Source of the DNA: Trichococcus pasteurii
GTDB taxonomy: Bacteria; Bacillota; Bacilli; Lactobacillales; Aerococcaceae
Assembly (NCBI RefSeq): GCF_900112935.1
Contig: NZ_FONM01000001.1
Location: forward strand, 62,001-126,000
Length of the DNA stretch: 64,000 bases
Direction: 5' to 3'
The translations under genes and the position numbers were made by a program. How positions within the stretch are numbered: the first letter of the stretch is position 1; the number at the start of each line of letters is the position of its first letter. Positions 433-51,982 of this stretch are shown one piece after another. The notes under the pieces are model-generated. The model was given only the letters and a program-made list of their open reading frames with translations, was not told the DNA's origin and did no database searches.

Positions 433-464
433 GTTTGCGAGTCTGGCATGTTCACTCATACAAC

Positions 465-520
465 AAAAAAACAGCCCGCTGACTGGTTCGGATTTTTCCG
501 AATAGTCAACGGGTTGTTTT
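465..520 (+). terminator. Rho-independent terminator after the ICMT-like gene
   Basis: A long imperfect inverted repeat (arms starting ACAGCCCGCTGACTGGTTCGG and ending CCGAATAGTCAACGGGTTGT) is followed by TTTT. It lies between the plus-strand gene and the minus-strand queuosine operon. Confidence 0.8.
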
Positions 521-538
521 GGATTATTGGGTGATTAG

Positions 539-725
539 ATGGCTAGCTTCACGGGTTAGCCCTTCAAAAAATATAAAGGAACCCCTTGTCTCTACGATCC
601 AAGGATACTATTCGACTAACCTGCTGACGCAGGAAGTCTCTCAGCATATTGCGCTCTACGATGCTCAGTCGGCACGATTTCCTAAATTTCTTTCAGGGCT
701 GAGCGAACCCGTTCCGCTTTTCTTA
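539..725 (-). repeat. Copy A of a palindromic intergenic repeat, downstream of queC
   Basis: Read on the minus strand it begins with the queC stop codon itself (TAAGAAAAGCGGAACGGG), runs through TCAGCCCTGAAAGAAATTTAGGAAAT and ends near AAGGGCTAACCCGTGAAGCTAGCC. The same two ends are found at 15541-15697 and 41803-41962. Copy A carries about 50 extra or diverged bases in the middle. The two ends are inverted relative to each other, so the transcript could fold into a long hairpin. No protein is encoded. Confidence 0.85.
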
Positions 726-1391
726 TTTATTCAAATATTCTGTCAGTCCGGCGTTCCGGAGTTTGCAGGAAGGGCATTCGCCGCAACCACCGGGGACACC
801 CATATAACAAGTATGGGTATGTTCCTCGATGTAGGCGAGGCAACCCAGCTGATCGGCCAGCTCCCATGTCTGCGCTTTGGTCAGGTACATCAACGGCGTT
901 TCAACGTTGAAATTGTAATCCATGGCCAAGTTCAGGGTCACGTTCATCGATTTGACGAACACATCGCGGCAGTCTGGATAGCCGCTGAAGTCCGTTTCGC
1001 ACACGCCCAATATGATGGTGCGGATGCCTTTGGATTTGGCGAAAATGCCTGCCAACAACAGGAACAGTGCGTTCCGTCCATCGACGAAGGTGTTCGGATA
1101 GTCTTCGGCATCGGCTTCTTTGATTGTCTGCGACTCATCCATCAATGCGTTCGTCGTGACTTTACCCATGACCTGCGCATCCAAGATGTGGTGTTCGACC
1201 CCCAGATCTTTGGCAATCCATGCCGCCCGTTCCAGTTCGATGCCATGGCGTTGGCCATAGCTGAAGGAAAGCGCCACTGTGTTTGCCGCGCCGTACTTTT
1301 GGATGGCTTGGATCAGGCAAGTCGTGGAATCCTGCCCGCCTGAAAAGATGACCAATGCTTGTTTTTGCGTTGTCCCGTTCACATTTTCCAT
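723..1391 (-). CDS. queC: 7-cyano-7-deazaguanine synthase QueC
   Basis: ATP-dependent conversion of 7-carboxy-7-deazaguanine to preQ0, a cytosolic step towards queuosine in tRNA. The 222-residue protein has the PP-loop SGGQDSTTC near residue 18 and a C-terminal zinc-binding Cys cluster, [17 protein letters not shown], at the usual distance; the length fits the family. Its ATG follows the queF stop directly (TAGATG), so the two are translationally coupled in a queT-queF-queC operon. Other pathway genes (queD, queE, folE) are not in the window. The stop codon is the first base triplet of repeat copy A. Confidence 0.95.
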
Positions 1392-15477: not shown

Positions 15478-15533
15478 AAAACACCCCACAGAATGGCAGT
15501 TCCTACTCGGAGCGCCCATTCTGCGGGGTGTTT
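15478..15533. terminator. Hairpin between the repeat and the DUF6512-like gene
   Basis: AAACACCCCACAGAATGG and CCCATTCTGCGGGGTGTTT are near-perfect arms with A- and T-runs outside. It lies just beyond repeat copy B and would end the minus-strand ABC operon transcript. Confidence 0.75.
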
Positions 15534-15540
15534 CACATGT

Positions 15541-15697
15541 TTGTAAAGCGTTCCATGCATCCAAAAATGATGGCTAGCTTCACGGGTTAGCCCTTCGGAA
15601 ATTAGATAAATCTGACCCATTGCGCTCTGCGATGCTCATTCAGGGCCAGATTTCCTAAATTTCTTTCAGGGCTGAACGAACCCGTTCCGCTTTTCTT
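15541..15697 (-). repeat. Copy B of the palindromic intergenic repeat, downstream of the first ABC exporter operon
   Basis: Read on the minus strand it starts TAAGAAAAGCGGAACGGG 8 bp after the stop codon of the ABC gene, continues TTCAGCCCTGAAAGAAATTTAGG and GAGCATCGCAGAGCGCAATG, and closes with AAGGGCTAACCCGTGAAGCTAGCC and GGATGCATGGAACGC. It aligns over its whole length with copy C (41803-41962) and at both ends with copy A. Arms of roughly 45 bases are inverted around a short centre. Confidence 0.88.
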
Positions 15698-15704
15698 AAA
15701 TGCT

Positions 15705-17591
15705 TTATTCGAGCTCGAATGCTCCTGTATAAAGCTGATAATATTTTCCTTGCTCGCCGATCAATTTCTCGTGATCGCCGCGTTCGATGATGCGGCCTTG
15801 TTCCATCAGCATGATCACATCGGCATTCTGGATCGTGGACAGGCGGTGGGCGATGACGAATACGGTGCGTCCGTGCATCAAAGCATCCATGCCGCGCTGA
15901 ACAATCGATTCCGTCCGCGTATCGATGCTGGAAGTCGCTTCATCCAAGATCATGACGGGAGGATCGGCAACAGCCGCACGGGCAATCGAAAGCAATTGCT
16001 TCTGCCCTTGGGATAGGCCTTCACCGTCGCCGGAAATGACTGTTTGGTATCCCAACGGCAAACGGGAGATGAAATCATCGGCATTTGCCAAGCGTGCTGC
16101 CGCATAGATTTCTTCATCGGATGCGTGCAGATTGCCGTAACGGATATTTTCAAGAATCGTTCCGGTAAAGAGGTTGGTATCCTGCAACACGATACCCAGG
16201 GAACGGCGCAGGTCATTTTTCTTGATGTCTGAGATGTCGATGCCGTCATAAACGATTTTTCCGTCCTGGATATCGTAGAAACGATTGATCAGGTTCGTTA
16301 TGGTCGTCTTGCCGGCGCCCGTCGATCCCACGAAAGCGACCTTCTCGCCGGGATGGGCATAGAGGCTGATGTCATGCAGAATCTGTTTGTCGGGATTGTA
16401 GGAGAAGTCGACGTCAAAGAATCGGACATCACCGGTCAGTTGCGTATAGCGGACCGATCCGTCTGCTTGAGGCACTTTCCATGCCCAAAGTCCGGTATGG
16501 TTTTCGGCTTCCTTGACTTCATCACCGACCATGGTTGCATTCACCAAGGTTACGGTGCCTTCATCCAACTCCGGTTGTTCATCCATCAATTCGAAAATCC
16601 GCTCAGCACCCGCCAAAGCCATCACGATCGATGAAACTTGTTGGGAGATTTGGTTGACCGGCATCGTGAAGGAACGGCTCAACTGCAGGAAGGAAGCGAT
16701 CGCCCCCAAGGTCAGGCCGCCGAAACCTGATACAGCCATGGCTCCTCCGAACATAGCGATCAGAGCATATTGCAGGAAGCCCAGATTCCCCAGGATCGGC
16801 ATCAGGATATTTGCGTAGATGTTTGCGTTCGTCGCGCTCTCGCGCAACTCGTCATTGAGTTTATCGAAACGTTCCTTGGATTCCGTTTCGCGTCCGAAGA
16901 CTTTCACTTCTTTTTGCCCATGCATCATTTCCTCGATATAGCCATTCACTTTACCGAGCGTCTGCTGCTGCTTGACGAAGTTGACGGAACTCTTGCCGCC
17001 GATCGTTTTCGTGACTGTGATCGACAAAGCGACCATCAGGACGACGATTAGCGTCAGCGGCAAACTTACCGCCAGCATCGCAGCGAATACGCTGATGATC
17101 GTGACCAGGGAAGAAAAGGCCATCGGGATGCTTTGCGAAAGCATCTGGCGCAAAGTATCGATATCATTGGTGTAGCGGCTCATGACATCCCCGTGCGCAT
17201 GAGTATCGAAATATTTGATCGGCAAGGTCTGCATATGCGCGAACAGCTCATCGCGGATTTTTTTCTGGATTCCCTGGGAAATGGAGACCATCAGGATGTT
17301 GTAGACATAAGTCGCCACGACACCGACCATGTAAATGCCGGCCATCATTGCGATTGCACGGTACATGCTGGTGAAGACTGGGTTGGTTACCCCCAATAAA
17401 GGCGTGATATATTCATCAATCAGCGTCTTAAGGAAAAGCGAACCCACAACATTGGCAAGGGCGCTTATGAGGATACAGATCAATACAAGGCTAAAGGTGA
17501 ATTTGTGGCCTTTGGAAATATAGGACAGGAGGCGTTTTGTCGTTTTGCCGGCATCTTTGGCTCCGCGCCGTTTTGGTTGATTAGGCTTCAT
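15705..17591 (-). CDS. Heterodimeric ABC multidrug exporter subunit with canonical catalytic site (EfrB/BmrD-like)
   Basis: A fused TMD-NBD exporter half of about 628 residues. Six membrane helices precede an NBD with Walker A GSTGAGKTT, signature LSQGQKQ and Walker B VMILDEATSS, so the catalytic Glu is present. Its partner at 17581 has Asp at that place, the usual asymmetric pair of EfrAB, BmrCD and LmrCD. The start is the ATG at 17589-17591, 11 bp inside the partner gene, after AAGGGGGAAAAATTGCTG; a longer frame to 17681 overlaps the partner more deeply. Repeat copy B begins just after the stop. Substrates are likely drugs or lipids, not determinable here. Confidence 0.9.
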   Translation of the reverse strand: MKPNQPKRRGAKDAGKTTKRLLSYISKGHKFTFSLVLICILISALANVVGSLFLKTLIDEYITPLLGVTNPVFTSMYRAIAMMAGIYMVGVVATYVYNILMVSISQGIQKKIRDELFAHMQTLPIKYFDTHAHGDVMSRYTNDIDTLRQMLSQSIPMAFSSLVTIISVFAAMLAVSLPLTLIVVLMVALSITVTKTIGGKSSVNFVKQQQTLGKVNGYIEEMMHGQKEVKVFGRETESKERFDKLNDELRESATNANIYANILMPILGNLGFLQYALIAMFGGAMAVSGFGGLTLGAIASFLQLSRSFTMPVNQISQQVSSIVMALAGAERIFELMDEQPELDEGTVTLVNATMVGDEVKEAENHTGLWAWKVPQADGSVRYTQLTGDVRFFDVDFSYNPDKQILHDISLYAHPGEKVAFVGSTGAGKTTITNLINRFYDIQDGKIVYDGIDISDIKKNDLRRSLGIVLQDTNLFTGTILENIRYGNLHASDEEIYAAARLANADDFISRLPLGYQTVISGDGEGLSQGQKQLLSIARAAVADPPVMILDEATSSIDTRTESIVQRGMDALMHGRTVFVIAHRLSTIQNADVIMLMEQGRIIERGDHEKLIGEQGKYYQLYTGAFELE

Positions 17592-19320
17592 CAGCAATTT
17601 TTCCCCCTTTCGTTTGTGAATAGTAGACTTCTTGGTAAATCGTGTTTGTTGCCAGCAATTCATCGTGCGTTCCGATGCCATTGACGCTGCCGCTCTCCAT
17701 CACAATGATCTTGTCGGCATCCTGCACGGAAGAGACGCGCTGGGCGATGATGAATTTGGTTGTGTTCGGGATTTCTTGCTTGAAAGCGGTCCGGATCAAG
17801 GAGTCCGTCCGCGTATCCACGGCGCTGGTCGAATCATCGAGAATCAGGATTTTTGGTTGTTTAACCAAAGCGCGGGCGATGCAGAGCCGTTGTCTTTGCC
17901 CGCCGGAAACGTTTGTGCCGCCTTCTTCAATATAAGTGTCGTATCCATCAGGAAGGCGTTGGATGAATTCATCGACTTGCGCTTGTCTGGCCGCTTTCAT
18001 CAGCTCTTCATCGGTAGCGGCGGGATTGCCCCAGCGCAGATTGTCTTTGATCGTTCCTGAGAACAGGATATTTTTTTGGAGCACCATAGCGACTTCGCTA
18101 CGCAATGTTTGCATATCATAATCGCGTACATCGATGCCGCCGACTTTCACCGTACCACCGGTTGCATCATACAGACGCGGAATAAGGTGGACCAATGATG
18201 TTTTGGCACTGCCGGTACCGCCGATTATGCCGACCGTCTCCCCTGATTTGACGGAAAAACTGACATTTTTCAAAGCAAGCTTCTTCGGATCGTTGGTGTA
18301 ACTGAAATCCACCTGCTCGAAAGTTACCGATCCGTCAGGAATGACCACGATTGGATTGCTGCCGTTCTTCAGGTCGCTGTCCTCACTCAGTACTTCCACA
18401 ATCCGCTCCGCTGAAGCGCGGGAGATCGTGACCATAACAAAGACCATCGAAATCATCATCAAGCTCATCAGAATTTGGGAAGCGTATGTGATCAGACTCA
18501 TCAGTTGGCCTGTCGTCATCGAACCGGAGACGATCATGCGCGCACCCAATAGGGACAACGTCAGAATGCTTGCGTACATCGTGAACTGCATCAACGGGCT
18601 GTTGAAGGCCAAGATTTTTTCAGCTTTGGTGAAATCAGTGTAGATTTTCTTGGAGACCGACTTGAATTTCTCGGTTTCGTGCTCTTCACGGACAAAGGAC
18701 TTGACGACCCGGATGCCGTAAAGATTTTCCTGTACGACACGGTTCAGCTTGTCATAGGTGCGGAACACTTTCTGGAAAATTGGGAAAGCTTGTGACATGA
18801 TCAGGTAGAGACCGAAGCCCAGGAACGGGATCGCGCCAAGGAAGACCATTCCGAGTTCGCTGTTGATGCTCAAAGCCATCATCAATGAGAACACGAGCAT
18901 AAGTGGCGCCCGGACCATGATCCGGATGATCATCTGGTAGGAGTTCTGGACGTTTGTGATGTCCGTCGTAAGACGTGTGATCAGACTGGACGTCGAGAAC
19001 TGATCGATATTCGAAAATGAGAAATCCTGGATATTGTAGTACATGTCCTTGCGGATGTTTTTTGCGAATCCGGCCGAAGCTTTTGCCGCATGCAAACCGG
19101 ACAAAACTCCGAAACCTAAGGAAAAGAGGGTGGAGACAATCAAAATCAGTCCGATTCGGATGATGAACGGCATGTCTCCTTCTCCGATCCCTTTATCGAT
19201 GATCATAGACATCAGATAAGGGATAAGCACTTCAAGGACGACTTCCAAAGTGACATATATAGGGGCAAGGATCGAGTCCTTTTTATACTCGCGTATGCTG
19301 CCCATGAGTTTTTTTATCAT
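17581..19320 (-). CDS. Heterodimeric ABC multidrug exporter subunit with degenerate site (EfrA/BmrC-like)
   Basis: A 579-residue exporter half: TMD with six helices, then an NBD with Walker A IIGGTGSAKTSLV, signature VSGGQRQRLC and Walker B ILILDDSTSAVD. Asp instead of the catalytic Glu marks the non-hydrolysing site of a heterodimer, and Ala for the second-last Gly of Walker A is a further departure that relatives of EfrA also show in variant forms. The gene follows the MarR regulator by 56 bp and overlaps its partner by 11 bp, so regulator and exporter form one operon. Confidence 0.9.
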   Translation of the reverse strand: MIKKLMGSIREYKKDSILAPIYVTLEVVLEVLIPYLMSMIIDKGIGEGDMPFIIRIGLILIVSTLFSLGFGVLSGLHAAKASAGFAKNIRKDMYYNIQDFSFSNIDQFSTSSLITRLTTDITNVQNSYQMIIRIMVRAPLMLVFSLMMALSINSELGMVFLGAIPFLGFGLYLIMSQAFPIFQKVFRTYDKLNRVVQENLYGIRVVKSFVREEHETEKFKSVSKKIYTDFTKAEKILAFNSPLMQFTMYASILTLSLLGARMIVSGSMTTGQLMSLITYASQILMSLMMISMVFVMVTISRASAERIVEVLSEDSDLKNGSNPIVVIPDGSVTFEQVDFSYTNDPKKLALKNVSFSVKSGETVGIIGGTGSAKTSLVHLIPRLYDATGGTVKVGGIDVRDYDMQTLRSEVAMVLQKNILFSGTIKDNLRWGNPAATDEELMKAARQAQVDEFIQRLPDGYDTYIEEGGTNVSGGQRQRLCIARALVKQPKILILDDSTSAVDTRTDSLIRTAFKQEIPNTTKFIIAQRVSSVQDADKIIVMESGSVNGIGTHDELLATNTIYQEVYYSQTKGGKIADEA

Positions 19321-37711: not shown

Positions 37712-39940
37712 ATGAAAGTCATAATGAAATACTTAAAACCTTTTGCCGGCACGATACTGATCAGCCTACTGATTTTGTTCGGTCAGGCAATCGGCGAATT
37801 GAGCCTGCCGAATCTGATGAGTGACATCGTCAATACAGGCATCCAAAATGGAGGCGTCGAACAGGAAGCGCCTCAAGCGCTGCCTTTGGATGGCTTCGCA
37901 CTTATGACGTTATTCATGGATGAAAAAGACAAGGAAACGTTCCAGAACAGCTATCAGTTGATTGAGGGCGGATCGGCGGAAGCCGAAGCCTACAGCGCAG
38001 ACTTTCCGGAAAGCCAGGAAACGGATTTCTACGTGCTGGATGAAACCGATGCGGAACAACTGGCCTCGTTGGAGAGCATCTTCAGCAAGGCAAGCTACAG
38101 CTTCGTGACGTTTATGCAGGAAATGGGCGGACAGCAAGGCAATGCCGCATCAGTCGATGCCGAGAGCGGCTTCGAAGATGCAGATATGAACCAACTTTAC
38201 GCGCTGTTGCCGCAATTGCAACAGCTGCCGCAGGAAGCTTTCACGGCGTCCATGGATGTTGCCGATGATGCTGAACCGATGCTCTACAGCCAAATCGGGA
38301 TCCTGTTTACGAAACTCTTCTATGAAGATCTGGGAGCGGATATGGATGCGCTCCAGAACCAATACATTATGACGAAAGGCGCACAGATGCTCGCTATCGC
38401 AGTCGCGGTGTCCGTTGCTTCCGTAGCTGTAGCGTATTTCTCTTCGCGGATCGCCGCGAAAGTTTCCGGCCGGATGAGAAGGGATGTCTTCGCCAAAGTC
38501 GAAAGTTTTTCCAACACTGAGTTCGATAACTTTTCGACCGCATCCCTGATTACGCGCACGACCAATGATGTGCAACAGATCCAGCAACTGATCACGATCG
38601 GAATCCGCATGCTGTGCTATGCACCGATCTTGGCCACTGGTGGTCTGATTATGGCGATCGACAAGAGCGTCTCGCTGGCGTGGACAATCGCCGTTGCGGT
38701 TATTGCCCTCGTCGGCATCATGATGACGATTCTGTCGATTGCGATGCCGAAGTTCAAAGTGCTGCAAAGCTTGACGGACAGATTGAATCTGGTCAGCCGC
38801 GAGAACCTTTCCGGCATGATGGTCATCCGCGCTTTCGGGAATGAACCGTTTGAAGAAAACCGCTTCAACGACGCCAATGAAGACTATACCTTTACTAACC
38901 GCTTTGTGCAGCGTTTGATGTCACTCTTGATGCCGGCGATGATGCTCGTCATGAACGGCGTTTCGCTGCTGATCATCTGGTTCGGCAGCCAGCAGGTCGC
39001 TGATTCTGCCCTGCAGATCGGGGATATGATGGCCTACATCCAATATGTGATGCAGATCATTATGGCCTTCTTGATGATTTCGATGATGTTCATCTTCCTG
39101 CCGCGTGCTTCTGTATCGGCTATACGGATCGGGGAAGTGTTGGATACGGATCTGAGCATCACTGATCCAATCGATGCGCAACCAAGCTTAAAGAACGAAG
39201 GTCTCATCAGCTTCAACAATGTCTCTTATCATTATCCGAAGGCGAGCGAGAATGTCTTGACCGACATTTCCTTTACCGCCAGGCCTGGCGAAACGACGGC
39301 AATCATCGGTTCGACTGGTTCCGGAAAATCGACGCTGATCAATCTGATTCCGCGCTTCTACGATGTGACGGACGGCTCAATCGAGATCGACGGCATCGAC
39401 ATCCGGAAAATGACGCAAACCGATCTGCGCCGCAACATCGGCTACGTTCCGCAAAAGGGGATGCTCTTCTCCGGAGACATCGCCTCAAACGTTCTGTACG
39501 GAAAAGACGACGCTTCGATGGATGAGATCATGAAAGCCATTGAAGTTGCCCAAGCGAAGAACTTCGTATCGGAGATGGAAGACGGCATCGAAACAGCCAT
39601 CGCACAAGGCGGCGGCAACGTCAGTGGCGGGCAGAAACAGCGCTTGGCCATTGCCCGCGCGTTGGTCAAAAAAGCCCCGATCTATATTTTTGACGACAGC
39701 TTTTCGGCGTTGGACTTCAAAACGGATGCGGCATTGCGTTCCGCTTTGCATGCCTACACGGACAACGCAACTGTCCTGATCGTGGCGCAGCGGATCAGCA
39801 CCATCATGGATGCGGAACAGATCATCGTCCTCGATAAAGGCAAAATCGTCGGGATAGGGACTCACGATGCGTTGATGAAAAACTGTGAGACTTACCAAGA
39901 AATTGCTAAATCTCAGCTTTCAGAGGAGGAATTAGCATGA
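37712..39940 (+). CDS. ABC exporter subunit with degenerate site and a large extracytoplasmic insert
   Basis: A 742-residue exporter half. After the first membrane helix (about 8-30) comes an acidic, soluble stretch of about 175 residues (48-220) before helix 2 (GAQMLAIAVAVSVASVAVAYF), where most exporters have a short loop. The NBD has Walker A GSTGSGKST, VSGGQKQRLA and Walker B YIFDDSFSALD; Asp replaces the catalytic Glu, the degenerate site of a heterodimer. The partner at 39937 has Glu. The ATG at 37712 follows AAAAGGGATTGCAC. An extracytoplasmic domain here could gate or recognise substrate. Confidence 0.9.
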   Translation: MKVIMKYLKPFAGTILISLLILFGQAIGELSLPNLMSDIVNTGIQNGGVEQEAPQALPLDGFALMTLFMDEKDKETFQNSYQLIEGGSAEAEAYSADFPESQETDFYVLDETDAEQLASLESIFSKASYSFVTFMQEMGGQQGNAASVDAESGFEDADMNQLYALLPQLQQLPQEAFTASMDVADDAEPMLYSQIGILFTKLFYEDLGADMDALQNQYIMTKGAQMLAIAVAVSVASVAVAYFSSRIAAKVSGRMRRDVFAKVESFSNTEFDNFSTASLITRTTNDVQQIQQLITIGIRMLCYAPILATGGLIMAIDKSVSLAWTIAVAVIALVGIMMTILSIAMPKFKVLQSLTDRLNLVSRENLSGMMVIRAFGNEPFEENRFNDANEDYTFTNRFVQRLMSLLMPAMMLVMNGVSLLIIWFGSQQVADSALQIGDMMAYIQYVMQIIMAFLMISMMFIFLPRASVSAIRIGEVLDTDLSITDPIDAQPSLKNEGLISFNNVSYHYPKASENVLTDISFTARPGETTAIIGSTGSGKSTLINLIPRFYDVTDGSIEIDGIDIRKMTQTDLRRNIGYVPQKGMLFSGDIASNVLYGKDDASMDEIMKAIEVAQAKNFVSEMEDGIETAIAQGGGNVSGGQKQRLAIARALVKKAPIYIFDDSFSALDFKTDAALRSALHAYTDNATVLIVAQRISTIMDAEQIIVLDKGKIVGIGTHDALMKNCETYQEIAKSQLSEEELA

Positions 39941-41799
39941 GCGAAATGAAACAAAGAAGACCGCAAGGCGGCCCGGGCGGAGGCCACGGTCCGATGGCCG
40001 GCATGAGCGCGCCGGTCGTGAAAGCGAAGGACTTCAAAGGCGGATTCAAAAAATTGGCCGCATACCTGTCGCCTTTCAAATGGCTGATGGCAGTCGTCTT
40101 CATATTGGCGATCGCTTCCTCCCTGTTTGGGATCGTCGGACCAAAAATCATGGCTTTGGCCATCGACAAATTGGTCGCCGGCGTCATGCTGAAGTTCACA
40201 GGCGGATCCGGCGAAATCGATTTCGATTACATCGGAACAGTCCTGTTGGGGCTCTTGGGCTTGTACGTGCTGAGCGCCACTTTCTCTTATCTGCAAGGAT
40301 TTCTGATGTCGGGTGTTTCCGCAAAAGTTTCCTATAAACTGCGCAAAGACATCATGGAGAAAATAAACAAATTGCCGCTGGCCTATTTCCACAAGAACAG
40401 CCAAGGGGATGTGCTTTCCAGGATCACGAATGATGTGGACACCCTGAATACCAGCCTGAACCAGAGCTTAACCCAGATCATCACATCGATCACGACGCTG
40501 GTGGGTGTCTTCATCATGATGCTGACGATCAGCTGGCCGCTGACGCTTGTCATCCTTGGCGTGCTGATCGTGTCCATGATGCTACTGATGCTGATCATGT
40601 CGAAGTCGCAGAAGCACTTCGCCAACCAGCAGAAATACTTGGGTGCGGTCAATGGCCATGTCGAAGAAATGTACGGCGGGCATGTGGTCATGAAAGCCTT
40701 CAACGGGGAAGAAAAATCCGTTGCCGCTTTCGATAAAGAGAACGATCAGTTGATCGAAGCCGGTTTCAAGGCCGAATTCCTTTCCGGTTTGATGATGCCG
40801 TTGCTGAGCCTGATCGGAAATCTTGGGTATGTCGTGGTCTGTATCATGGGTGGCGCGATGGCTGCTGCCGGAAACATGACGATCGGGGATATCCAAGCCT
40901 TCCTGCAATACGTGCGTAACTTCACTCAACCATTGACGCAAGTCGCGCAAGTGGGGAGTCAATTGCAACGGATGGTTGCTGCCTCTGAACGAATCTTCGA
41001 GTTCCTCGAAGAGGAAGAAGAGACAGTGACCGAAGCGAAAATCGAAATGGCGACCGCTGATGTCAAAGGGAACGTCCGCTTCGATCACGTCAAGTTCGGC
41101 TATGAACCGGATAATCTGGTCATCAAGGACTTCTCCGCGGATATCAAAGAAGGACAAAAAGTCGCGCTCGTCGGTCCTACGGGCGCCGGCAAGACGACGA
41201 TGGTAAAATTGTTGATGCGTTTCTACGACTTGACGGGTGGAGCCATCTACATCGATAACCACAACCTTACCGATTTCACGCGCAGCGATCTGCGGACGGA
41301 ATTCGGGATGGTGTTGCAGGATACGTGGCTGTACAACGGCACCATCATGGAGAACATCCGCTACGGGAAACTGGATGCGACCGATGAAGAAGTCATCGCC
41401 GCCGCAAAAGCCGCGCAAGTGGATCACTTTGTCCGGACATTGCCGGATGGCTATGATATGGTCCTGAACGAGGAAGCCAACAATGTTTCTCAGGGAGAGA
41501 AACAATTGCTGACGATCGCGCGGGCAATCCTTGCTGATCCGCAGATCATGATCTTGGATGAAGCGACGAGCTCAGTGGATACGCGGACGGAAGTGCTTAT
41601 CCAGAAAGCGATGGATACGCTGATGCAAGGCAGAACCAGCTTCATCATCGCGCATCGTCTGTCGACCATCAAGAATGCCGACCTGATCCTCTGCATGAAC
41701 AACGGGGATATCGTCGAACAAGGAACCCACGAAGAATTGCTGGCGAAAGGCGGCTTCTACGCCGACCTCTACAACAGCCAGTTCGACGAAGGCGAATAA
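39937..41799 (+). CDS. ABC exporter subunit with canonical catalytic site, second pair
   Basis: A 620-residue exporter half with a Gly/Pro-rich N-terminal tail (QRRPQGGPGGGHGPMAGM), six helices and an NBD: Walker A GPTGAGKTT, signature VSQGEKQLLT, Walker B IMILDEATSSVD with the catalytic Glu. Its start overlaps the partner stop by 4 bp (ATGA) after CAGAGGAGGAATTAGC. It corresponds to the 15705-17591 subunit of the first operon; the two gene sets are paralogous but well diverged. Repeat copy C begins 3 bp after its stop codon. Confidence 0.92.
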   Translation: MSEMKQRRPQGGPGGGHGPMAGMSAPVVKAKDFKGGFKKLAAYLSPFKWLMAVVFILAIASSLFGIVGPKIMALAIDKLVAGVMLKFTGGSGEIDFDYIGTVLLGLLGLYVLSATFSYLQGFLMSGVSAKVSYKLRKDIMEKINKLPLAYFHKNSQGDVLSRITNDVDTLNTSLNQSLTQIITSITTLVGVFIMMLTISWPLTLVILGVLIVSMMLLMLIMSKSQKHFANQQKYLGAVNGHVEEMYGGHVVMKAFNGEEKSVAAFDKENDQLIEAGFKAEFLSGLMMPLLSLIGNLGYVVVCIMGGAMAAAGNMTIGDIQAFLQYVRNFTQPLTQVAQVGSQLQRMVAASERIFEFLEEEEETVTEAKIEMATADVKGNVRFDHVKFGYEPDNLVIKDFSADIKEGQKVALVGPTGAGKTTMVKLLMRFYDLTGGAIYIDNHNLTDFTRSDLRTEFGMVLQDTWLYNGTIMENIRYGKLDATDEEVIAAAKAAQVDHFVRTLPDGYDMVLNEEANNVSQGEKQLLTIARAILADPQIMILDEATSSVDTRTEVLIQKAMDTLMQGRTSFIIAHRLSTIKNADLILCMNNGDIVEQGTHEELLAKGGFYADLYNSQFDEGE

Positions 41800-41802
41800 G
41801 TA

Positions 41803-41962
41803 TAAGAAAAGCGGAACGGGTTCGCTCAGCCCTGAAAGAAATTTAGGAAATCTGGCCCTGAATGAGCATCGTAGAGCGCAATGGGTCCGATTTATCTAAT
41901 TTCCGAAGGGCTAACCCGTGCAGCTAGCCAATGCTTTGGGATGCATGGAACATTTTGCAACT
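41803..41962 (+). repeat. Copy C of the palindromic intergenic repeat, downstream of the second ABC exporter operon
   Basis: Starts TAAGAAAAGCGGAACGGG just after the ABC stop codon, centre GAGCATCGTAGAGCGCAATG, end AAGGGCTAACCCGTGCAGCTAGCC and GGATGCATGGAACATT. The left arm (41814-41860) and right arm (41881-41919) are inverted over about 45 positions with gaps, so the transcript can form one long hairpin. It aligns along its length with copy B. Confidence 0.88.
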
Positions 41963-42042
41963 CTATGAAGCACCTACGGTGATGCACTTTTGATTCTATA
42001 AAAGTTCTCTATTATGACAATAAAACTGCATCATGCAACCTA

Positions 42043-42090
42043 AAGAAGATGATCCTGATACGCAATCGGGATCATCTTCTTTATTTTTTT
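42043..42090 (+). terminator. Terminator-like hairpin 240 bp after the second ABC operon
   Basis: AAGAAGATGATCCTGAT and ATCGGGATCATCTTCTT arms followed by TATTTTTTT. With the preceding ATCATGCAACC it resembles the element at 44043-44100 on the other side of the first GPH gene. Confidence 0.8.
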
Positions 42091-50577: not shown

Positions 50578-50639
50578 AATCCCAACATTAAGAAATCGTT
50601 AGAAAAATCATTTCCATCTAATAAAACCGATAATCAAGA

Positions 50640-50890
50640 GGAGTACGCATCATACCTTGTTTCCAGAGAGTCGCCGCCAGTGAGAGTGCGATAGCGAAGG
50701 GGATGCCGAATGGACTTGAGAGGGTTGCCTTGAAAAGAGTAGGGGCAAACGGGGAACCTGGTCCGTTAACAGACAGGCACATATGTTGGTATGTGAACGA
50801 GTGGGCGATTCATTTCGTCAATTTGGGTGGTATCGCAGGAGAATGCAAGCTCTTGTCCCTTTAAAGGGGGGACAAGGGCTTTTTTTGTAC
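50640..50890 (+). promoter_or_regulatory. T-box leader of the trp operon, tryptophan specifier
   Basis: CCAGAGAGTCGCC marks Stem I, GAATGGACTTGAG holds the probable specifier TGG (50711-50713), TTGGGTGGTATCGCAGG (50823-50839) is the T-box, and CTTGTCCC/GGGACAAG with GGCTTTTTTT is the terminator. Uncharged tRNA-Trp would allow readthrough into trpD. The T-box has UGGU; a G-discriminator tRNA-Trp would pair it by a G-U. Confidence 0.9.
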
Positions 50891-50914
50891 ACAAAAAATG
50901 ATGAGGTGAATGAA

Positions 50915-51982
50915 ATGCTAGAGATAAAAGAGACGAAACAGACCGAAGAAATTTTCCCGCAAGACAGCATGAAAGCCGCTATCGATAAACTAGTGAAAAA
51001 AGAAGAACTTTCCCCGCAATTGACGAAGACCATCATGCACCAGATCATGAGCGGTCAAGCCAGTCCGGTTCAGATCGCATCTTACCTGACTGCTATGCGT
51101 ATGAAAGGCGAAACGGCCGGAGAAATCAGCGCTTCCGCTGAAGTGATGCGGGATTTTTCCAATAAAGTACGGACCAAGACGACGGCATTGGACATCGTCG
51201 GAACCGGCGGCGATCAAGCCTTCACTTTCAACATCTCAACCGTCTCATCCTTTGTCATCGCAGCCGCAGGGATCCCGGTGGCGAAACACGGCAACCGCAG
51301 CTCCTCAAGCAAATGCGGCAGCGCGGATGTGCTGGAAGAACTAGGTGTCAACATCGAAGCCAGCGCACAGCACAGCGAAACGATGCTGGAAGAAATCGGG
51401 ATGTGTTTCATGTATGCCCAAAAATATCATCCATCGATGAAGCATGCGGCACCCGTCAGGAAAGAAATGGGCGTCCGGACGATCTTCAACGTCCTTGGGC
51501 CATTGGCGAACCCGGCCAATGCGAATATGCAATTGCTCGGTGTATACGATGTCGCGCTAGTGGACACGATGGCTGAAGTGCTGAACCAATTGCAGATGGA
51601 ACGGGCTTTGGTGTTCGGCGGCAATGACGGTCTGGATGAAATCACTTTGACCACAACATCGGAAGTCGCGGAGCTCCGCGACGGCAAGGTCACCCACTTC
51701 ACATTCGATCCGAAAGATTACGGTTTCGAGTACTGCACGAACGAAGATCTGGTGGGCGGGGAACCGGCTGAGAATGCCGCCATCGCCTTGGCAATCTTGA
51801 GCGGCGAAAAAGGGCCGAAGCGCGACACTGTGTTGTTGAACGCCGGCATGGCCATTTATCTGGCCAACGACGACTATACGATCGCTGACGGCATCAAACG
51901 CGCTGCCGAATTGATCGACAGCGGAGCGGCACTGGGGAAATTAAAGCAATTCATCACAGCATCACAGGAGGCGACAAAATGA
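50915..51982 (+). CDS. trpD: Anthranilate phosphoribosyltransferase TrpD
   Basis: Joins anthranilate to PRPP, first step of the operon in view. The 355-residue protein carries DIVGTGGDQAFTFNIST (PRPP site), AKHGNRSSSSKCGSADVLEELG and IFNVLGPLANPAN. The ATG at 50915 follows GATGAGGTGAATGAA; a longer frame from 50783 runs through the T-box. First gene after the T-box. No trpE or trpG precedes it, unlike most trp operons, so anthranilate must come from genes elsewhere or from outside. Confidence 0.93.
   Translation: MLEIKETKQTEEIFPQDSMKAAIDKLVKKEELSPQLTKTIMHQIMSGQASPVQIASYLTAMRMKGETAGEISASAEVMRDFSNKVRTKTTALDIVGTGGDQAFTFNISTVSSFVIAAAGIPVAKHGNRSSSSKCGSADVLEELGVNIEASAQHSETMLEEIGMCFMYAQKYHPSMKHAAPVRKEMGVRTIFNVLGPLANPANANMQLLGVYDVALVDTMAEVLNQLQMERALVFGGNDGLDEITLTTTSEVAELRDGKVTHFTFDPKDYGFEYCTNEDLVGGEPAENAAIALAILSGEKGPKRDTVLLNAGMAIYLANDDYTIADGIKRAAELIDSGAALGKLKQFITASQEATK

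What the first reader, a model, noticed from the sequence alone, without database searches (positions are those of the whole stretch)
41803..41962. Three-copy palindromic intergenic repeat (about 155 bp) fixed just after gene stop codons
Copies at 539-725, 15541-15697 and 41803-41962 share both ends: TAAGAAAAGCGGAACGGG on one side and AAGGGCTAACCCGTGAAGCTAGCC on the other. The arms are inverted, so RNA from any copy can form one long hairpin. Every copy starts 0-10 bp after a stop codon and has the same orientation relative to that gene, on either strand. This suggests a mobile or amplified 3'-UTR module (terminator, RNA stabiliser or small-RNA source) rather than a random insertion. Copy A has an altered middle, as expected of a loop free to diverge.
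Basis: partly seen in the sequence, partly recalled or inferred. Interest (0 to 1): 0.72.

Follow-up and report, generated by a model that had tools for sequence, protein, structure and literature searches.

The report
Modular hairpin repeats beside gene terminators
Three copies of a mosaic, hairpin-forming DNA repeat sit between genes and their transcription stop signals in a Trichococcus genome; the repeat recurs dozens of times per genome, swaps internal parts between copies, and belongs to an apparently uncatalogued RNA-like family found in several families of lactic-acid bacteria.

Summary
The window is Trichococcus. A covariance model places it at the three stated sites and nowhere else in the window (E 1.8e-32, 4.1e-32, 7.8e-14). 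I read about 40 loci in this genome; 13 of 13 Trichococcus genomes match. A ~119-nt stem plus a tail is the constant part; up to four structured modules of ~60-67 nt are added in many combinations. Core and module M3 show compensatory change.
24 of 120 orthologous positions in other species are filled. Elements lie against the A-tract and hairpin of an existing terminator (terminator 16 of 24, A-run 23 of 24; non-coding control 0.142 and 0.488), so they are not themselves terminators. The stop-codon rule holds for 17 of 34 own copies; eight are antisense. At 8 of 12 shared sites module content differs between species.
Best reading: a non-autonomous mobile RNA-like repeat inserting beside terminators, its copies reshuffled by recombination. 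It works like BOX elements; no sequence kinship was detected. Mobilising enzyme and host benefit are unknown.

The parts
520..722 (-). Copy A: class I outer stem, core and module M2; tail truncated (far end approximate)
   Evidence: R2 match 545-721; ends by comparison with empty alleles
578..641 (-). Module M2 inside copy A
   Evidence: BLAST of the M2 unit, L019:1431-1494:-, converted to window coordinates
463..519 (-). Native terminator hairpin and T-tract of queC, beyond copy A
   Evidence: sequence; terminator scan; the same hairpin follows the stop in empty alleles of G005 and G009
723..1391 (-). queC, the gene whose 3' end carries copy A
   Evidence: ORF; NCBIfam TIGR00364
15530..15695 (-). 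Copy B: class I core without modules, tail truncated (far end uncertain by about 10 bases)
   Evidence: R2 match 15576-15694; repeat arm I1; empty alleles
15479..15533 (-). Native terminator-like hairpin beyond copy B
   Evidence: sequence, by eye; retained in empty alleles such as G009. The scan lists no - strand hit here
15705..17681 (-). ABC transporter gene upstream of copy B
   Evidence: ORF, NCBIfam
41806..42012 (+). Copy C: class I core without modules, with full tail; right end inferred from empty alleles
   Evidence: R2 match 41807-41925; empty alleles L031 and L036
41807..41925 (+). Core stem of copy C (119 nt)
41926..42012 (+). Tail of copy C
   Evidence: tail alignment of 23 own copies; empty alleles
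42041..42083 (+). Native intrinsic terminator of the ABC gene, beyond copy C
   Evidence: 19-pair stem followed by a T-tract; present in empty alleles L031 and L036
39937..41799 (+). ABC transporter gene upstream of copy C
   Evidence: ORF, NCBIfam

Best explanation
These are copies of a non-autonomous, mosaic mobile repeat. On the strand that usually runs with the upstream gene it can fold as an RNA: an outer stem, an internal core (UAGGAAA/UUUAUCU with a G-U pair beside a bulged base; UGAGC/GCGCA) and up to four extra hairpin modules. SHOWN: dispersal, presence/absence at orthologous sites, position against the A-tract and hairpin of a pre-existing terminator, covariation, and different module content at the same site in different species. 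INFERRED: an unknown enzyme inserts the element next to terminator A/T-tracts, which puts it between stop codon and terminator (sense) or beyond the T-tract of an opposite gene (antisense); these places are tolerated because neither coding nor termination is lost. Once in place, copies exchange internal modules by recombination or gene conversion while the tail stays locus-specific; some are lost by deletion, leaving short scars. Any effect on mRNA 3' ends or stability is secondary and untested.
For: About 40 loci in the own genome (65 matching pieces, read); matches in 13 of 13 Trichococcus genomes. Empty and filled alleles at 12 sites, 24 of 120 positions in other species filled, plus the site of copy C. 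Terminator-like hairpin starting 82-114 nt after the core in 16 of 24 copies, against 0.084 of random positions and 0.142 of non-coding windows; A-run in 23 of 24, against 0.339 of random positions (23 of 23 copies) and 0.488 of non-coding windows. Changes on both sides in 13 of 36 core pairs, 11 of 24 M3 pairs and 23 of 36 pairs in a 17-sequence alignment over four families. Element lengths fit 119 nt plus units of 64, 60, 67 and 66. At 8 of 12 sites filled in two or more species the modules differ; tail identity 0.883 within and 0.770 between sites, while M1 and M2 are about as alike between as within sites. G-U 42 against A-C 2 cells on the + strand; + strand folds better in 57 of 71 copies. 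Deletion scars at two sites.
Against: No mobilising enzyme or autonomous copy found. A test for a 3-bp target duplication was negative (7 of 23, shuffled mean 6.09, P 0.40); only three sites with clean empty alleles look like one (TAA, TAA, CAA). No terminal inverted repeat seen by eye. 8 of 24 copies showed no terminator by my rule. Shared descent of same-site copies is not proven at every site: some differing pairs have tails no more alike than unrelated copies (0.71-0.75 at L113 and L022). The + strand is not favoured in the largest forms (five copies with all four modules average -143.6 on + and -150.3 on -), and 38 of the 42 G-U cells come from two columns. The number of pair types does not exceed shuffles (499, 499 and 182 of 500 reach it), and the alignment was fitted to the model. 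Deep conservation could instead mean a host function.
Confidence: 0.7

Rival explanations
1. Host-maintained 3'-UTR RNA module: retained because the structured RNA protects or processes mRNA 3' ends (stabiliser, RNase substrate or source of a 3'UTR-derived small RNA).
For: RNA-like covariation across families; sense and close to a stop codon in 17 of 34 copies; relatives of module M3 next to tRNA genes and in the 23S-5S spacer.
Against: 96 of 120 orthologous positions show no class I/II element by my patterns; deletion scars; 8 of 34 copies antisense and 4 in divergent regions; module content turns over.
Confidence: 0.2
2. The element is itself an intrinsic terminator.
For: It is a stable hairpin after a stop codon; terminator-like hits inside 7 of 34 copies, six of them where M2 lies.
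Against: A separate hairpin with T-tract follows and exists without the element in empty alleles; the element's stem is followed by a mixed tail, not a T-run.
Confidence: 0.03
3. Derivative of an IS200/IS605-type transposon (single-strand transposition, subterminal hairpins).
For: Possible subterminal hairpins at the left end and in the tail; folding favours one strand in most copies; six Y1-transposase matches in the own genome, two of them cut by contig ends.
Against: I saw no transposase reading frame inside an element; flanking genes were not annotated and ends were not compared with those of any IS. A 3-bp duplication, if real, would not fit.
Confidence: 0.1
4. The compensatory changes come from template switching between palindrome arms (quasi-palindrome correction), not from selection on a fold.
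For: Arms are inverted repeats, and class I to class II is a whole-stem swap seen in few events.
Against: Imperfections are kept: a G-U pair in 17 of 17 cross-family sequences (21 of 22 in Trichococcus) beside a bulged base, A in 16 of the 17, and tandem G-A mismatches in the outer stem of many copies of both classes (by eye).
Confidence: 0.15

Closest known systems
BOX elements of Streptococcus pneumoniae and BOX-type repeats of S. suis (PMC3049150, abstract part and passages)
   Same: Modular interspersed repeat: flanking modules with variable internal modules, predicted stem-loop RNA, length varies at a locus between strains, parasitic interpretation; in S. suis two kinds of flanking modules enclose the same boxB modules, like class I/II here.
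   Different: BOX is described with terminal inverted repeats and target duplications, neither established here. No terminator targeting appeared in the passages read. No BOX sequence was compared; model R2 gave only one or two weak hits per genome in genus g24 (streptococci by my guess).
bcr repeats of the Bacillus cereus group (PMC3446304, passages)
   Same: Multi-copy intergenic elements, 40-51% of all bcr copies transcribed, often in UTRs or operon spacers; some with conserved RNA structure.
   Different: No module shuffling in the passages read; no sequence comparison made.
ERIC of enterobacteria (PMC2267715 section 11; PMC3049150 passages)
   Same: [quoted passage not shown] similar length and longer forms with inserts are recalled, from no call.
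   Different: Different phylum; no sequence comparison made.
Efa-1 of Enterococcus faecalis (PMC2267715, passages and section 11)
   Same: Structured intergenic family (163 nt, 65 members, pair of hairpins) in what I take to be the same order.
   Different: Its sequence is only in a figure, so identity with this family or with module M3 could not be checked.
STAR elements of staphylococci (PMC3532100, abstract and outline)
   Same: Intergenic, locus-specific sequence, loci expand and contract.
   Different: Described as interspersed direct repeats; no sequence comparison made.

Membership tests
BOX element | Modular architecture with variable internal modules between conserved flanks | tested here: met
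   Census of 87 elements in the loci I held, four of them spurious left-end picks; 8 of 12 sites vary
BOX element | Sequence relatedness to boxA/boxB/boxC | tested here: inconclusive
   No BOX sequence was fetched; R2 gave one or two weak, uninspected hits per genome in g24, whose identity as Streptococcus is a guess
BOX element | Terminal inverted repeats and target duplication | tested here: inconclusive
   No terminal repeat by eye; duplication 7 of 23 against 6.09 expected
MITE | Short, without a transposase gene, multicopy, with empty sites | tested here: met
MITE | Terminal inverted repeats shared with an autonomous transposon | tested here: inconclusive
   By eye only: the inverted repeat is subterminal on the right (75-100 nt tail); the ends were compared with no transposon
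MITE | Target site duplication | tested here: inconclusive
   Looks like 3 bp at L012, L014, L024; not significant overall
IS200/IS605-derived element | Ends matching a Y1-transposase IS of the genome | not tested
   Y1 genes located, ends not compared
Intrinsic terminator | Hairpin directly followed by a T-tract | tested here: not met
   Stem followed by a mixed tail; terminator lies beyond; hits inside 7 of 34 copies
Rfam family | Match to any of 4227 curated RNA families | tested here: not met
   No match at gathering score within an element in the window or, in the listings of 20 further loci, within an element; a few overlapping matches lie far below their gathering scores
Efa-1 (E. faecalis) | Sequence identity | not testable with these tools
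   Sequence is only in a figure

The most novel reading that the evidence does not exclude
A family of selfish structured RNAs runs through the Bacilli. It docks on transcription terminators, its conserved RNA core rather than DNA ends is what its mobilising machinery recognises, and it evolves by domain swapping; one of its domains (M3) also settled beside tRNA genes and between 23S and 5S rRNA genes, making it a bacterial counterpart of SINEs.
Probability: 0.17. Interest if true: 0.87.

Novelty: new variant of a known kind. Interest (0 to 1): 0.66.

Why it matters
It is an apparently uncatalogued, covariation-supported repeat family shared by several families of lactic-acid bacteria and perhaps other Bacilli. 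It lengthens the 3' UTRs of many genes, seems to choose terminators as landing sites, and offers a natural series of empty, filled and module-swapped alleles. That makes two open questions directly testable: how non-autonomous repeats of this sort move, and what structured 3' UTRs do in Gram-positive bacteria.

Tried and rejected
Terminator reading: rejected (see rivals). A simple palindrome: rejected; copy A's odd middle is a recurring module. Rfam: nothing within an element at gathering score. Plasmids and phages: the Trichococcus element matched no plasmid; queries from G063 (L277) and from G126 (L312) matched only Aerococcus tenax CP127381; L310 matched no plasmid; L312 matched no phage. 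The g38 query matched one plasmid and one phage record over query bases 1-54 only; these are almost wholly flanking gene and are not used. Target duplication: a by-eye list of eight copies did not survive a shuffled test (7 of 23 against 6.09, P 0.40); a first version of that script found no left ends and gave no result. SINE-like priming on the A-tract was considered; the apparent order element-duplication-A-tract does not suit it. One RT domain with an internal stop and six Y1 matches exist in the genome; nothing links them to the element. That the 121-bp E. faecium VNTRs are this family (recalled, from no call) could not be checked; the one passage read did not help. Controls: those use random positions, mostly coding; one search repeats them on non-coding windows and gives weaker but clear enrichment (P 6e-9 and 9e-7). 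Rows dropped: one search found 126 orthologous flanks outside the own genome and I fetched 120; one search kept 87 unique of 101 elements, four of them spurious; 16 of 87 whose length did not fit were left out of the energy comparison (71 left); own copies without a full tail were left out (24, 23 and 23 used). score only 9-13 candidates per genome, so copy counts there are floors.

Full report
OBSERVATION. Model R2, built from 22 Trichococcus cores, places the element at these three sites only; two weak reverse-strand matches lie on the same sites. Model R1 of module M3 finds nothing in the window. Copies B and C fold into one long hairpin with 0 of 200 shuffles as stable. The genome is Trichococcus: the ABC protein before copy C is 91-99% identical in eight Trichococcus records and 98% in a ninth labelled Sedimentibacter. 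BLAST of copy C gives 65 matching pieces in the own genome, which I read as about 40 loci, and all 13 genomes of the genus held here match. In the family, DNA similarity is otherwise seen in 1 of 63 genomes of other genera.

ANATOMY. An element starts GAAAAGC, followed by an outer stem, a core and the closing arm ending near GCTAGCC, then a tail of about 75-100 nt. The tail often holds TTATAMTTTCCTA: 11 of 23 own copies within 3 mismatches against 5% of shuffled tails, 9 of the 11 at 74-75 nt after the core; 5 of 13 copies from other genera have it nearer the stem, against 6%. Two alternative outer stems exist, class I and class II, with the same inside. Longer copies carry extra units: M1 (+64), M2 (+60), M3 (+67) and M3' (+66), in many combinations; a further insert, M4, sits within M3 in several copies. 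M3 and M3' are homologous (alignment A1); M1 resembles them by eye. A copy with M3, M1 and M2 folds with z = -5.4 (0 of 100 shuffles). A shorter hairpin of the same kind occurs at site L005 in several species.

STRUCTURE. In 22 cores 13 of 36 pairs have changes on both sides and 95.2% of cells pair, against at most 50.1% when slid. In 15 M3 units from Trichococcus and a second genus 11 of 24 pairs do, though 50 of 500 shuffles reach that count; the covariation score and percentage paired were reached by 0 of 500. In 17 cross-family matches (fitted to the model, so biased towards it) 23 of 36 pairs do, against at most 7 when slid. The number of pair types exceeds shuffles in none of the three. 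One G-U pair is kept in 17 of 17, beside a bulged base that is A in 16. G-U cells exceed A-C cells 42 to 2, but 38 of the 42 come from two columns. The + strand is more stable in 57 of 71 copies, not in the largest forms. This points to folding of one strand, as RNA or single-stranded DNA.

POSITION. Flanks orthologous to 12 own sites were sought in the genus and 120 of 126 fetched. Class I/II elements are present in 24 of 120. Where flanks align, empty alleles run from the gene into a terminator-like hairpin and filled ones have the element before its A-tract (some outputs were cut, so not every allele was read). A terminator-like hairpin on either strand starts 82-114 nt after the core in 16 of 24 copies, against 0.084 of random positions and 0.142 of non-coding windows; an A-run in 23 of 24, against 0.488 of non-coding windows. 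In the antisense copies that I read, the A-tract is the T-tract of the opposite gene's terminator. Sense placement within -6 to +10 of a stop codon holds in 17 of 34 copies, 4 are sense but further off, 8 antisense, 4 divergent, 1 unresolved. Short remnants at L018 (three genomes) and L113 (two) look like deletion scars.

MODULE EXCHANGE. Of 12 sites filled in at least two species, 8 differ in module content. At the site of copy A one genome has M2, another M1+M2, a third M3; at the site of copy C two have the bare core, one M2, one M3+M1+M2+M3'. Tails are locus-specific on average (0.883 within, 0.770 between sites), whereas M1 and M2 are about as alike between as within sites (0.966 and 0.945 with 4 and 41 pairs; 0.931 and 0.951 with 3 and 33 pairs; small numbers). 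At L012 two species have identical tails but only one has M1, with a changed left half of an inner helix. Recombination or gene conversion between dispersed copies explains such cases most simply. At L022 and L113 some differing pairs have tails only 0.71-0.75 alike, so independent insertion or divergence is possible there.

DISTRIBUTION. R2 matches 102 of 395 Lactobacillales genomes and 18 of 80 genera at E 1e-4. By my count 36 of the 102 are genus g24 with one or two weak, uninspected hits. Nine inspected loci from four families are clear relatives; two of them hold arrays of period about 122. In a class-wide sample 8 of 398 genomes match at 1e-6; three of the five outside Lactobacillales were read and have similar ends (AAAAGC; GCTAGACA or variants), which suggests but does not prove a wider family. 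M3 alone matches 52 of 395 Lactobacillales genomes (14 of 80 genera; 11 of the 52 are g24 with one weak hit) and 7 of 398 in the class, all Lactobacillales. M3 relatives lie in other 3'-UTR elements that begin GAGAGTGGGACAAAAG or variants, in the 23S-5S spacer (L285, L314, L316; Rfam confirms 5S and the end of 23S in L285) and beside tRNA genes (L309, L317, L319; tRNAs read by eye). In the GAGAGTGGGACA elements the helix UGAGC/GCGCA appears in permuted order (by eye).

WHAT IS KNOWN. No Rfam family reaches its gathering score within an element. Nine paper searches, seen as listings, showed no title or abstract start on repeats of this kind in Trichococcus; the library lacks most subscription papers, so this is weak evidence of novelty. 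The nearest analogue is BOX: modular, variable at a locus, with alternative flanks around shared inner modules in S. suis. Efa-1 of E. faecalis might be a relative; its sequence could not be read.

VERDICT. An ordinary kind of thing (small interspersed mosaic repeat) in an unusually well-marked form: RNA-like, modular, terminator-seeking and phylogenetically broad. What moves it and whether hosts use it remain open.

Noticed in passing
window 50621-50863 (+): T-box leader (Rfam RF00230, 111.8 bits) at a trpD gene (ORF 50783-51982), so probably the leader of the trp operon.
   Followed up: no
window 15705-17681 (-) and 39937-41799 (+): The genes before copies B and C are both ABC transporter permease/ATPases and share DNA similarity.
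   Followed up: no
L277, L279-L284, L286 (genome G063): A second multicopy 3'-UTR element, starting GAGAGTGGGACAAAAG or a variant, carries module M3; in some copies another internal hairpin is missing.
   Followed up: partly
L285, L314, L316; L309, L317, L319: Module M3 relatives in the 23S-5S rRNA spacer and next to tRNA genes in other genera.
   Followed up: partly
L345-L349 (genus g24): A single weak M3-like double hairpin per genome near a gene that looks like rpsU, with an L13 leader elsewhere in L345; may be an unrelated conserved RNA.
   Followed up: no
L134 (G004): A Trichococcus element whose M3 holds a further insert resembling the GAGAGTGGGACA-type element in reverse, by eye: nesting of two families.
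   Followed up: no
L294 (Aerococcus tenax CP127381, 591-kb record called a plasmid): A GAGAGTGCGACAAAAG element between two genes, similar to the G063 type.
   Followed up: no
L342 and L344 (genus g38): Head-to-tail arrays of three cores with a period of about 122 bp.
   Followed up: no
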